Assembly (NCBI RefSeq): GCF_040147005.1
Contig: NZ_JAMSHO010000001.1
Span: 2,170,001-2,234,000, forward strand
Origin: Halomonas sp. H10-9-1
Lineage (GTDB): Bacteria; Pseudomonadota; Gammaproteobacteria; Pseudomonadales; Halomonadaceae
DNA: 64,000 bases
Direction of reading: 5' to 3'
Shown here: in pieces, positions 17,492 through 60,224 of the stretch
How positions within the stretch are numbered: the stretch's first letter is position 1
Layout of the letters: the number at the start of each line of letters is the position of its first letter
Notes under the pieces: model-generated
The model's input: the letters and a program-made list of their open reading frames with translations, nothing else
What the model was told of the DNA's origin: nothing
Databases searched by the model: none
Made by a program: the position numbers and the translations under genes

Positions 17492-17581
17492 GGGGCTATC
17501 GCAGTTATCCATCGAGCCTTAGCGAAAGGCGCCGGGGACAGGTCGTAGAGGGGGTCCTATGCCAGGGATGGCATCGGTAGC
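17492..17581 (+). repeat. palindromic element copy A, left half (interrupted by IS1111-type element)
   Basis: The left half starts with an AGGGGCTATCGCAG-like terminus, followed by GAAAGGCGCCGGGGACAGG, GAGGGGG and the hairpin ATGCCA-GGGA-TGGCAT, then stops at GGTAGC. The matching right half resumes at 18998. Together they make one element of the same kind as copies B, C and D. The stems GGACAGG and GAGGGGG have their complements (CCTGTC, CCCCCTC) in the right half. Confidence 0.8.
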
Positions 17582-17587
17582 AATGGG

Positions 17588-17601
17588 ATGGAGTCCTCCC
17601 C
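17588..17601 (+). repeat. left subterminal inverted repeat of the IS
   Basis: ATGGAGTCCTCCCC is the exact reverse complement of 18977-18990. It begins about six bases inside the inferred left end. Confidence 0.88.
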
Positions 17602-17675
17602 ACCCTATATCGGCGTCGTTGCGCCACACTGGTGGGCGAGAACACCAACCAGCCTGAGGGTGAGGAGAACTCGTC

Positions 17676-18716
17676 ATGAACATTACCCGTGTCGGCGTCG
17701 ATATCGCAAAGTCTGTTTTTCATGTCCACGGCGTCGATCGCCATGATCAGGTGCAGTGGCAAGGTAAGTACACCCGCGAAAAATGGCTGAATGCGGTCAG
17801 CAAGCGGGTGCCGGCGGGAGCCGAGATCGGCATGGAAGCCTGTGCCTCGTCTCACTTCTGGGCGCGGGCCCTGCAGGCGCGGGGCTATCGCGTCAAGTTG
17901 ATCGCCGCACAGTTCGTGACGCCCTACGTGAAGAGCAACAAGAATGACCGGGTCGACGCCGAAGCGATCTGTGAAGCCATGGGGCGGCCCAGTATGCGCT
18001 TCGTGGCCGTCAAGAGCGTCGCTCAGCAGGATACCCAGGCGGCACACCGCATTCGTGAAGAGCTGGTACGGCAGCGCACGGCCAAGGCCAACCAGATACG
18101 CGGGCTGGTGGGGGAGTATGGCCTGGTCGCTCCGGTGGGTATCGGTCAGTTGCGTGCCGCCCTGCCTCGCTGGCTGGAAGCGGCAGACAACGGGCTGACG
18201 GATGCCTTTCGTGTCCTGCTTGCCGGCCTTGCCGAGGATCTGCGCCACCTGGATGAGCGCATCGCGACGGTCACGGCAAGCCTCGAGCGACAGGCCAAGA
18301 CCGACCCCGTGGCCAAGCGGCTGATGACGCTGCAGGGTATCGGTCCACTGACCGCCACCGCGCTGGCCGGCGCCCTCGGCGATGGCAAGAGCTTTCGGCG
18401 CGGGCGAGATTTTGCCGCCTCGCTCGGCTTGACGCCGCGACAGCACAGCACCGGGGGGCGAGACCGCCTGCTGGGCATCAGCAAACGCGGCGACAGTTAC
18501 CTGCGCAAGCTACTGGTGCATGGCGCGCGCTCGGTGCTCCGGCATGTGGGCACCAAGGACGACGGCCTGAGCCAGTGGGTCAGGCACCTGGCCGAGCACA
18601 AGCATGCCAATGTGGCGGTCGTCGCACTGGCCAACAAGACGGCACGGATCGCCTGGGCGGTAACCCGCCATGAGACGGCCTATGATGCGTCGCTGGCGTC
18701 GCGGCTGTCGGCATGA
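17676..18716 (+). CDS. IS110 family (IS1111 group) DEDD transposase
   Basis: A 346-residue, apparently intact transposase. The N-terminal RuvC-like DEDD domain shows D9 (VGVDIAKS), E54 (GMEAC), D91 and D94 (NKNDRVDAEA). A coiled-coil-like middle (about 120-210) leads to the Transposase_20 domain with LQGIGPLTATAL and FAASLGLTPRQ, and the candidate catalytic serine in HSTGGRDR (about S258). These enzymes work with an RNA guide encoded in the element's non-coding end. GTGAGGAG precedes the ATG. Its codon and base composition are a little less GC-rich than the neighbours, in line with transfer. Confidence 0.93.
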   Translation: MNITRVGVDIAKSVFHVHGVDRHDQVQWQGKYTREKWLNAVSKRVPAGAEIGMEACASSHFWARALQARGYRVKLIAAQFVTPYVKSNKNDRVDAEAICEAMGRPSMRFVAVKSVAQQDTQAAHRIREELVRQRTAKANQIRGLVGEYGLVAPVGIGQLRAALPRWLEAADNGLTDAFRVLLAGLAEDLRHLDERIATVTASLERQAKTDPVAKRLMTLQGIGPLTATALAGALGDGKSFRRGRDFAASLGLTPRQHSTGGRDRLLGISKRGDSYLRKLLVHGARSVLRHVGTKDDGLSQWVRHLAEHKHANVAVVALANKTARIAWAVTRHETAYDASLASRLSA

Positions 18717-18976
18717 AAAACGATTGGATTTAGCACGTTAGTGTAATATTGAGCATCGTCCACCACGATTGCTGAGCATGCTGCAGGATGGCGAACAGGT
18801 CGAACCGACGTCAGACAACCCCTTCTGGACGCTGAGCCTTTTGAGCTCGAGGTAGCGATTGGGAGCTGACGTGCGGATAGCCCATCAAGGTCCGATGCTC
18901 ATCAGAGCATCATTAACGAGACCGGATATACGTGTGCAGTCGTACCTACCGACCATCGTGCCTCGTGCTTGCAAAC
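18717..18976 (+). ncRNA. IS1111-type right-end non-coding region, candidate bridge/seek RNA
   Basis: This 260-bp stretch between the transposase stop and the right inverted repeat has no gene. In IS1111-group elements the guide RNA is encoded in the right end. Three short matches fit such a role: GGTAGCGATTGGG (18851-18863) resembles the left junction GGTAGCAATGGG (17576-17587); ATATACG (18926-18932) recurs at the right end (18989-18995); and CGTACCTACCGA (18941-18952) is nearly complementary to the repeat's TCGGTAGCGTAC target. Several small inverted repeats are present, such as GATGCTC/GAGCATC. The limits and strand are inferred. Confidence 0.5.
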
Positions 18977-18990
18977 GGGGAGGACTCCAT
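18977..18990 (-). repeat. right subterminal inverted repeat of the IS
   Basis: GGGGAGGACTCCAT is the perfect complement of the left repeat at 17588-17601. It lies about seven bases inside the inferred right end. Confidence 0.88.
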
Positions 18991-18997
18991 ATACGCC

Positions 18998-19074
18998 CAG
19001 GGAGGGGTTCACAGCGCCCCCTCGAAGGCCTGTCACCGGGATAGCCTTGAGCGGTGGTTCCATGAAATAGCCCT
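18998..19074 (+). repeat. palindromic element copy A, right half
   Basis: It begins CAGGGAGG-GGTTCACAGCG, as in the uninterrupted copies, then CCCCCTCGA and GGCCTGTCACCGGG, which complete the stems started before the IS. ATAGCCTTGAGCGGTG is shared with copy B. It closes with AAATAGCCCT, the inverse of the left terminus AGGGGCTAT. The remaining 19075-19155 is the upstream region of rraA. Confidence 0.8.
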
Positions 19075-58781: not shown

Positions 58782-58824
58782 GTGAAGTCCTCCAGAAATC
58801 GAATGTGCTGCGTATTATACAGAA

Positions 58825-58920
58825 CCGAGCGCCGAGCGCCGAGCGCCGAGCGCCGAGCAGCCAAGCTGCAAGCTGCAAGCTGCAAGCTGCAAGCTGCAAG
58901 CTGCAAGCTGCAAGCTGCAA
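58825..58920. repeat. heptamer VNTR locus E2
   Basis: Five CCGAGCG-type units (58825-58859, the last imperfect) are followed by eight exact CAAGCTG units (58862-58917). The same two heptamers occur in the same order at locus E1 (25336), but with fewer units. It lies between leuB and asd. Confidence 0.88.
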
Positions 58921-58941
58921 TGCATTATGGCTTCAACAGCA

Positions 58942-58979
58942 AAGGAGCAAGCCAAGGGGTTCCTTGAAGCTTGCTCCTT
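58942..58979 (-). terminator. hairpin between leuB and asd
   Basis: AAGGAGCAAGC/GCTTGCTCCTT arms enclose a second CAAGG/CCTTG stem with a GGTT loop, 16 paired bases in all. CAAGGGGTT-N-CTTG is shared with locus E1. It may end leuB transcription, or be part of the repeat family. Confidence 0.55.
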
Positions 58980-59004
58980 GTAGCTTGAGCCTGGCCGAAG
59001 GCCC

Positions 59005-60084
59005 TTACAGAGCCTCGAAGGCAGCCAGCACGGCATCCCCCATCTCGCGGGTGGAGACGGTGCGCGTGCCCTCGGAGGCAATATCGGCGGTTCTCAGGCC
59101 GTCGTCCAGCACCTTGCCCACGGCGGCCTCGATACGCTCCGCCAACGCGGGCTCATCCAGGGAGTAGCGCAGCAGCATGGCCACCGAGAGGATGGTGGCG
59201 AGCGGGTTGGCGATGCCCTGGCCGGCGATATCCGGGGCACTACCGTGACAGGGCTCATACATGCCCTGGCCACTCTCGTTGAGCGAGGCGGAGGGCAGCA
59301 TGCCGATGGAGCCGGTGAGCATGGCCGCGGCGTCGGAGAGAATGTCGCCGAACATGTTGCCGGTGACCACGACATCGAACTGCTTGGGCGCGCGCACCAG
59401 CTGCATGGCGGCGTTGTCGACGTACATGTGGGAGAGCTCGACGTCCGGATACTCCGGCGCCAGACGCTCCATCACCTCGCGCCACAGGATGGTGACCTCG
59501 AGCACGTTGGCCTTGTCCACGGAGCAGAGTTTCTTGCCGCGCTTCTGCGCCATCTCGAAGGCGACGCGGCCGATACGCTCGATCTCGCTCTCGGTGTAGA
59601 CATAGGTGTTGAAGCCCACCCGCTCGCCATCACGCTCCTCGATGCCGCGCGGCTGGCCGAAGTAGATGCCGCCGGTGAGCTCGCGCACGATCATGATATC
59701 GAGGCCGGCCACCAGCTCGCGCTTGAGGCTGGAGGCCTCAGCCAGCTGCGGATAGGTGATGGCCGGGCGCAGGTTGCCGAACAGGCCCAACTGCTTGCGC
59801 ACGCCGAGCAGCCCCTTCTCCGGCCGCTTGGCGAGATCCTCGATCCTGTCCCACTTGGGGCCACCCACGGCGCCCAGCAGGATGGCACGGGCCGCCTTGG
59901 CCTTCTCCAGGGTCTCGGCGGGCAGCGGCTCGCCGTGCACGTCATAGGCGGCGCCGCCCAGCAGCCCCTCCTCGACCTCGACGTCGAGGCCGCGGGCCTG
60001 GCAGGCGGCCAGGAGGCGACTGGCCTGGGCGGTGATCTCGGGGCCGATGCCGTCGCCCGGCAGTACCAGAATCTTCTGAGTCAT
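59005..60084 (-). CDS. leuB: 3-isopropylmalate dehydrogenase
   Basis: A 359-residue NAD-dependent decarboxylating dehydrogenase of leucine synthesis. ILVLPGDGIGPEI opens the fold, RELTGGIYFG and VDKANVLEV are substrate-binding, and NMFGDILSDAAAMLTGSIGM plus HGSAPDIAGQGIANP are the metal and cofactor motifs. AAGGAAG before ATG 60084 decides the start. Confidence 0.96.
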   Translation of the reverse strand: MTQKILVLPGDGIGPEITAQASRLLAACQARGLDVEVEEGLLGGAAYDVHGEPLPAETLEKAKAARAILLGAVGGPKWDRIEDLAKRPEKGLLGVRKQLGLFGNLRPAITYPQLAEASSLKRELVAGLDIMIVRELTGGIYFGQPRGIEERDGERVGFNTYVYTESEIERIGRVAFEMAQKRGKKLCSVDKANVLEVTILWREVMERLAPEYPDVELSHMYVDNAAMQLVRAPKQFDVVVTGNMFGDILSDAAAMLTGSIGMLPSASLNESGQGMYEPCHGSAPDIAGQGIANPLATILSVAMLLRYSLDEPALAERIEAAVGKVLDDGLRTADIASEGTRTVSTREMGDAVLAAFEAL

Positions 60085-60120
60085 CTTTGCTTCCTTGTAT
60101 TGCCGCCCCACCAGTCGGGG

Positions 60121-60224
60121 CTTTCCCGGCGACAAGCCTTCGAGGAGGCGCTGTGAATACCTCCCTGTACGCTACCCACGCCATCCCTGGCGTAGGACCT
60201 CCTCTTCGGCTTGTCCCCGGCGCC
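60121..60224 (-). repeat. palindromic element copy C inside the leu operon
   Basis: The 104-bp core form: arms CGGCGACAAGCC and GGCTTGTCCCCGG, then GAGGAGG and CCTCCTC, with the tip ACGCCA-TCCC-TGGCGT. It has no AGGGCTATCGCAG-like ends. It fills most of the 174-bp gap between leuD and leuB, which are co-directional, so it is probably transcribed. Confidence 0.8.

What the first reader, a model, noticed from the sequence alone, without database searches (positions are those of the whole stretch)
17492..60224. A four-copy palindromic element whose stems co-vary between copies
Copies A (17492-19074, split), B (24252-24424), D (26697-26874) and C (60121-60224) share one fold: two nested stems and a tip hairpin. 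The stem sequences change in pairs. C has GACAAGCC with GGCTTGTC, D has AACCAGCC with GGCTGGTT, A has GACAGG with CCTGTC. The next stem is GAGGAGG/CCTCCTC in C, GGGGAGG/CCTCCCC in D and GAGGGGG/CCCCCTC in A and B. The tip is ACGCCA/TGGCGT in C and ATGCCA/TGGCAT in A. Such compensation implies that pairing, as RNA or single-stranded DNA, has been kept by selection or by the mobilising enzyme. I do not recognise it as a named family.
Basis: seen in the sequence. Interest (0 to 1): 0.72.

Follow-up and report, generated by a model that had tools for sequence, protein, structure and literature searches.

The report
Mobile repeat carrying paired CsrA-type hairpins
A short self-complementary DNA repeat, scattered through this salt-loving bacterium and many distant relatives, keeps two small hairpins whose loops look like the landing sites of the global regulator CsrA, so it may be spreading, or soaking up, control by that regulator.

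Summary
The four copies belong to a dispersed repeat with about 54 places in this Halomonadaceae genome and 12-68 model matches in 23 of 24 sampled same-genus genomes. Stems covary: 24 of 36 pairs change on both sides, 0 of 500 shuffles as high. In 33 stem pairs G-U outnumbers A-C 69:17, so one strand is the folded one, which argues against arm-to-arm conversion alone. Between co-directional genes 84 of 114 copies are sense. On that strand both hairpins carry A-N-G-G-A-N hexaloops 18-19 nt apart, A and GGA nearly fixed and N free: the published CsrA/RsmA site, at a bridging distance. Diverged relatives across Gammaproteobacteria keep it: in 86 of 86 armed copies with a tip hairpin, GGA is in the tip loop, which was not part of the search (73 ANGGA). 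In one genome a loop-blind scan found exceptions at the tip. Outer arms and ends differ between lineages while the core stays. Copy A is split by an IS110; the same IS entered eight copies at the same base. No Rfam match; ten paper searches found no description. Transcription and CsrA binding are inferred, not shown.

The parts
60119..60226 (-). Copy C, complete core between leuD and leuB, sense to the operon
60183..60188 (-). Copy C tip hexaloop AGGGAU (ANGGAN)
   Evidence: sequence, fold
60161..60166 (-). Copy C hairpin-2 hexaloop AGGGAG (ANGGAN), closed by UAC/GUA
   Evidence: sequence, fold
60149..60157 (-). Unpaired conserved strand UUCACAGCG 3' of hairpin 2
24252..24424 (+). Copy B with outer arms (GGGATATCGCAG / CTACGATATCCC type) between ppsA and ppsR
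24325..24330 (+). Copy B tip hexaloop AGGGAU
   Evidence: sequence, alignment
24347..24352 (+). Copy B hairpin-2 hexaloop AAGGAA
   Evidence: sequence, alignment
26696..26877 (-). Copy D, enlarged tip form, between an acyl-CoA dehydrogenase and a CoA-transferase gene, sense
26731..26736 (-). Copy D hairpin-2 hexaloop AGGGAG
   Evidence: sequence
26800..26805 (-). Copy D loop AAGGAU at the tip of the inserted part
   Evidence: sequence, fold
17492..17581 (+). Copy A, left half with outer arm; tip hexaloop AGGGAU at 17564-17569
17582..18994 (+). IS110-family element inside copy A, after GGTAGC
17676..18716 (+). IS110-family RNA-guided transposase ORF (346 aa)
   Evidence: Pfam PF02371/PF01548, NCBIfam NF033542
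18995..19074 (+). Copy A, right half with outer arm; hairpin-2 hexaloop AGGGAG at 18999-19004
57397..57456 (.). Core-deleted remnant: both outer arms and a piece of the 3' stem

Best explanation
The four copies are members of a dispersed, MITE-like palindromic repeat whose conserved core works as RNA: a long stem ending in a junction with two hairpins, each with an ANGGAN hexaloop. The two loops form a paired site for a dimer of CsrA/RsmA, the host's global RNA-binding regulator. Sitting in gene spacers and read through mostly in the sense direction, copies place dual CsrA sites into the 3' and intercistronic parts of mRNAs, and many copies together can buffer or titrate CsrA. Shown: dispersal, fold and covariation, strand polarity, loop conservation, site spacing, sense bias, one csrA gene in each of 13 genomes tested, presence/absence between relatives. 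Inferred: transcription, CsrA binding, any effect on neighbours or on free CsrA, and what moves the repeat.
For: Loops in 146 distinct genus-level copies: tip A145 N G146 G144 A146 N, hairpin 2 A146 N G146 G145 A146 N, N free, closing pairs of hairpin 2 switching between UA/UA and CC/GG. 18-19 nt between the GGA motifs. Review PMC7652899 (passages): SELEX RUACARGGAUGU with mostly six-base loops closed by AC/GU, RsmE contacts to ANGGAN hexaloops, bridging of sites 10-63 nt apart, best above 18. Class-wide: 86 of 86 copies with arms and a tip hairpin have GGA in the tip loop, 73 ANGGA, 7 AGGA, 6 NGGA, the tip not being part of the pattern (55 matches without arms and 17 without tip hairpin not counted). 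Loop-blind scan of 240 kb of G286: 52 of 58 hairpin-2 loops ANGGAN. G-U 69 to A-C 17. Sense 84, antisense 30 between co-directional genes. csrA: one per genome in 13 of 13; the 52 aa given align throughout with CsrA chain 7yr6_E.
Against: No binding or expression data. 30 of 114 copies are antisense. In the loop-blind scan 13 of 49 copies with an upstream hairpin had no GGA there, 12 of them reading TCCT or TCCA. Six class-wide tip loops lack the A. Two own copies have lost the core and one the tip. The tip stem of six or more pairs is longer than the four or fewer of most SELEX hairpins. The conserved TTYACRGCG strand is not explained by CsrA. G001 of the same genus has csrA but no match at E<=0.001.
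Confidence: 0.6

Rival explanations
1. The fold and loops are a single-stranded DNA signal for the enzyme that moves the repeat (for instance an HUH/Y1-type transposase as for REP elements). The loops are enzyme contacts and resemble CsrA sites by convergence.
For: The repeat is mobile or lost between relatives. One strand is favoured, which ssDNA would also give. The TTYACRGCG strand is fixed as well.
Against: Ends and arms differ between lineages while the core stays, the reverse of what an end-reading enzyme needs. Sense bias. Both loops fit the CsrA motif in detail. RAYT genes were not searched for.
Confidence: 0.2
2. The core is a selected RNA but its partner is another protein or the ribosome, for example a stability or processing element in 3' ends.
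For: Sense bias and short distances to upstream genes; conserved TTYACRGCG; GGA also occurs in Shine-Dalgarno sequences (recalled).
Against: Fixed A, free N and hexaloop size match the CsrA/RsmE contacts and are not needed by a ribosome site (recalled).
Confidence: 0.13
3. No function: pairing is kept only because palindrome arms correct each other during replication or recombination, and the repeats are selfish debris.
For: Arms unrelated between copies yet nearly perfect in G027 and G029; many copies in inverted pairs.
Against: G-U to A-C imbalance; loops are not paired, so arm correction cannot keep them; sense bias.
Confidence: 0.07

Closest known systems
CsrB/CsrC and RsmX/Y/Z, CsrA-sequestering sRNAs
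   Same: GGA in hairpin loops, several sites per RNA (PMC7652899, passages)
   Different: Here two sites per unit, dispersed in tens to hundreds of copies, inside a palindromic mobile repeat; no Rfam match at gathering score
REP/BIME elements (GTAG- and CGTC-tagged; PMC3733652, passages)
   Same: Intergenic palindromes in many copies, sometimes in pairs or arrays
   Different: Those are 20-40 bp with an unpaired end tag; these are about 100-320 bp with a branched fold and no common GTAG or CGTC end tag
MITEs
   Same: Small non-coding units with inverted ends; clear presence/absence with short duplication in L367 against G406
   Different: Ends differ between lineages while an internal RNA-like core is kept; no autonomous partner found in the own genome with the one end tried
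IS110/IS1111 elements that insert into palindromic repeats (PMC1525189, PMC11208160, PMC11187229; search listing)
   Same: The IS in copy A uses this repeat as a precise target in eight copies
   Different: The IS is a guest of the repeat, not its source

Membership tests
CsrA/RsmA binding-site RNA | ANGGAN hexaloop on a hairpin | tested here: met
   Both hairpins in nearly all of 146 genus-level copies; 73 of 86 class-wide tips ANGGA, 7 AGGA, 6 NGGA
CsrA/RsmA binding-site RNA | Two sites at bridging distance | tested here: met
   18-19 nt; published 10-63, best above 18
CsrA/RsmA binding-site RNA | CsrA encoded by the host | tested here: met
   One csrA in each of 13 genomes tested
CsrA/RsmA binding-site RNA | Transcribed and bound by CsrA | not testable with these tools
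   No expression or binding data held
CsrB/RsmZ sRNA families of Rfam | Match to the curated family model | tested here: not met
   No match at gathering score in the window or ten loci of other genomes
REP/BIME | 20-40 bp palindrome with unpaired GTAG or CGTC end tag | tested here: not met
   About 100 nt or more, branched; GTAG occurs inside the genus-level core but not as a common end tag
REP/BIME | RAYT transposase in the genome | not tested
   No genome search left
MITE | Inverted ends and target duplication | tested here: inconclusive
   Paired outer arms in 11 of 40 own copies, some with about 9-10 bp direct repeats by eye; ATACCC/GGGTAT ends and a short duplication at one G286/G406 site
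MITE | Related autonomous element | tested here: inconclusive
   No pair of AGGGCTATCGCAG ends at IS distance in the own genome, up to one mismatch; other ends not tried
Intrinsic terminator | GC-rich hairpin followed by a T run | tested here: not met
   No common T run after the 3' arm in the 40 printed own copies (by eye)

The most novel reading that the evidence does not exclude
A class-wide superfamily of mobile repeats spreads ready-made dual CsrA sites. The core has been kept while the mobilising ends were replaced again and again, so the CsrA pair itself is what selection preserves. In hosts such as Methylotuvimicrobium buryatense (552 motif matches) read-through of hundreds of copies would make transposons a main CsrA sink and rewire the Csr regulon by insertion.
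Probability: 0.4. Interest if true: 0.92.

Novelty: new variant of a known kind. Interest (0 to 1): 0.78.

Why it matters
CsrA/RsmA controls metabolism, motility and biofilm formation in many Gammaproteobacteria, and a 2026 preprint explains regulon turnover by mutations that make or break short ANGGA sites in leaders (PMC12889724, passages). A mobile element that installs folded dual sites would be a different and faster route, and hundreds of copies could change how much free CsrA a cell has. It also gives a concrete, testable function to a large class of unexplained intergenic palindromes.

Tried and rejected
Inverted duplication of the target as the source of the arms: the apparent case in L367 2057-2152 lies inside a 158-bp repeat unit present in dozens of places, so an internal deletion in G406 fits. 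In-place flipping at the G007/G009 locus: L127 (G008) keeps the arm of one copy next to a second, reversed copy, so an inverted pair with different losses fits better (by eye).

Gene orientation: three callers were tried. A GC3 caller gave 18 sense, 4 antisense in own. A 300-base ORF rule gave 6:3 in own with 26 of 40 undecided and 22:11 in relatives with 73 of 112 undecided. The codon model I report gave 21:5 in own (2 of 40 undecided) and 63:25 in relatives (9 of 113 undecided, 1 duplicate dropped; one of the 25 is a partial copy in L120).

Shared neighbours across families: 52 own against 60 other loci gave one exact shared site (window D and L083; 72% and 59% aa identity), which could be chance; leuC also neighbours a copy in L095, at another place of the operon. 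Only G029 itself is held of its genus. A superfamily covariance model was not built (one search failed); a pattern was used instead. One search counts include chance hits in genomes with one or two matches.

Papers: ten searches listed no paper describing CsrA sites in dispersed repeats; only the open-access library held was searched and most listed papers were not opened. Alcanivorax CsrR1/CsrR2 (PMC9788540, passages) are CsrA-related sRNAs, not described as dispersed repeats in the passages seen. Rfam 12 (PMC4383904, passages) mentions CsrA motifs and MITEs apart.
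Full report
What was checked. BLAST of the own genome (3.79 Mb; window = C1:2170001-2234000) with copy C gave 43 matches, and a covariance model from 36 aligned copies gave 56 at E<=0.01, 37 of them at 98 bits or more. Fetching the weaker places sorted the rest: copies split by one IS110, copies with an insert in the tip, copies reduced to their arms. Together about 54 places by my count. Both searches scored only part of their candidates, so this is a lower bound.

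Who the host is. The window is therefore from a Halomonadaceae genome; its own record is not named. Of 24 other same-genus genomes searched, 23 have 12-68 model matches and G001 none (96 candidates scored per genome).

The fold. On the strand of copy C (structure): GGGGC/GCCCC, CCGG/CCGG, GACAAGCC/GGCTTGTC, a G-N-A by G-N-A internal loop, GAGGAGG/CCTCCTC, then a junction with a tip hairpin and hairpin 2 (UAC-ANGGAN-GUA), followed by unpaired UUCACAGC. On 35 distinct own rows 93.5% of cells pair against 33-46% for slid versions; 24 of 36 pairs change on both sides (shuffled mean 13.6, 0 of 500); covariation score 0.351 against 0.158. Shuffles ignore relatedness, so I looked for tests that depend on it less.

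Strand polarity. In an alignment made without structure, of 146 distinct copies (36 own, 110 from relatives), G-U counts 71 and A-C 27 over 36 pairs; without the three columns that are unpaired in many copies it is 69 to 17 (own 28:6, relatives 41:11). Correction of one arm by the other, or mutation without selection on folding, should give equal numbers, because a G-U on one strand is an A-C on the other. Cells are not independent (20 positions show G-U, 11 show A-C). So the strand with the GGA loops is the folded one. Between co-directional genes 84 copies are sense and 30 antisense (own 21:5, relatives 63:25). The gene calls come from a codon model trained on the window, not from annotation; cruder callers gave the same direction.

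The loops. In the 146 copies the tip loop reads A(145) N G(146) G(144) A(146) N and hairpin 2 A(146) N G(146) G(145) A(146) N, while the hairpin-2 closing pairs switch between UA/UA and CC/GG. The review PMC7652899 (passages) gives the CsrA SELEX consensus RUACARGGAUGU with GGA mostly in six-base loops closed by AC/GU, RsmE contacts to an ANGGAN hexaloop, and bridging of two sites 10-63 nt apart with an optimum above 18. Here 18-19 nt separate the two GGA motifs. The relatives' copies were taken from the best-scoring ones listed, so they lean to the consensus; the next tests avoid that.

Wider family. G027, G029 and G034, of other families of the order, keep the core. In G027 and G029 the printed copies have arms unrelated to each other; in G034 several copies share arms. 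A pattern for hairpin 2 and the following strand matched 84 of 369 genomes drawn from the class, 25 with five or more by my count, against at most two for the reversed pattern. Of 158 distinct matches in 149 held loci, 55 had no arms, 17 had arms but no tip hairpin, and 86 had both; the tip was not part of the pattern, yet all 86 tip loops hold GGA: 73 ANGGA, 7 AGGA, 6 NGGA. Named records among those with arms and an ANGGA tip include Marinobacter, Microbulbifer, Stenotrophomonas, Xanthomonas, Vibrio, Vreelandella and Billgrantia. In 240 kb of it a scan that did not prescribe the loop found ANGGAN in 52 of 58 three-pair hairpins before the conserved strand, and a scan by arms in 30 of 34, two of the other four not looking like elements. 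Against this, 13 of 49 copies with an upstream hairpin had no GGA there; 12 of these read TCCT or TCCA, that is, GGA on the other strand.

Mobility. For 14 of the 40 listed own copies, at least one sampled relative has a copy between the same genes, but orientation is not always kept: between leuD and leuB it is as in the own genome in G005 and reversed in G002, G018 and G012 (by eye). Between G286 and G406 (matched pieces 88-99% identical) L367 10417-10575 is absent from G406, with ends ATACCC and GGGTAT and a short duplication, and 18914-19243, which holds two copies, is absent too. In the own genome 11 of 40 copies have both outer arms of the AGGGCTATCGCAG type, some flanked by about 9-10 bp direct repeats (by eye); no pair of such ends at IS distance was found. 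In G029 most of the 25 matches to L083 cover only the core, and one at 75% identity spans the arms as well. Ends and arms thus change between lineages while the core stays.

The IS110. ORF 17676-18716 is an IS110-family RNA-guided transposase (NF033542). The same left junction, GGTAGC followed by the IS end, is seen in eight copies, the right junction in four; whether each IS is complete was not checked. The repeat is therefore a preferred target. IS110 elements entering palindromic repeats are known (PMC1525189, PMC11208160, PMC11187229; search listing).

How it most likely works. The host has one csrA gene, whose 52 matched residues align throughout with a solved CsrA (7yr6_E). A transcript reading through a sense copy would present two CsrA hairpins at bridging distance. 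I infer that CsrA binds there, that single copies may tune or protect their mRNA, and that many copies together buffer CsrA. Hairpin 2 with its three-pair stem fits the SELEX preference for short stems; the longer tip stem may bind less well. None of these steps is shown. The main rival is an ssDNA signal for a transposase: changing ends, sense bias and the fit of both loops speak against it, the fixed TTYACRGCG strand speaks for some further partner.

Novelty. Rfam 15 has no match at gathering score in the window or in ten loci of other genomes; one search gave only sub-threshold matches. Ten paper searches listed no description of such an element; a 2026 preprint on Csr sites across species including Halomonas (PMC12889724, passages) does not speak of dispersed repeats in the passages seen. 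I file it as a new variant of a known kind: a MITE-like dispersed palindrome whose conserved core is a pair of CsrA-type hairpins.

Noticed in passing
window 17582-18994; L186, L187, L188, L190, L191, L192, L193: One IS110-family element (14-bp inverted ends GGGGAGGACTCCAT, recalled as typical of the IS1111 group) sits at the same base of the repeat in eight copies, with both hairpin-2 variants accepted: a natural set for reading its guide RNA target rules.
   Followed up: partly
window 26696-26877; L039, L041, L042, L183, L184: A second form in which about 80 nt replace the tip loop; where complete it brings its own CANGGAUG loop.
   Followed up: partly
L068-L100 (G027, G029, G034): Outer arms of 24-30 bp are nearly perfect but unrelated between copies in G027 and G029; many copies stand in inverted pairs about 40-130 bp apart, and G034 has direct arrays.
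   Followed up: partly
window 60149-60157 and all families seen: The unpaired TTYACRGCG strand after hairpin 2 is as conserved as the loops and is not explained by CsrA.
   Followed up: no
window 57397-57456: A core-deleted remnant with both outer arms.
   Followed up: no
window 26696-26877 and L083: Copy D lies between the same two genes, in the same orientation, as a copy in G029 of another family; G029 has a second, reversed copy there.
   Followed up: partly
window 24314-24338 and other own copies of that tip type: In one tip subfamily the stem is kept through a GA by GA tandem mismatch and a bulged A; the main stem has a conserved G-N-A by G-N-A internal loop.
   Followed up: no
L369 (G286) near base 11300: Synteny between M. 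buryatense and its relatives breaks next to a copy of the repeat, as if copies seed rearrangements.
   Followed up: no
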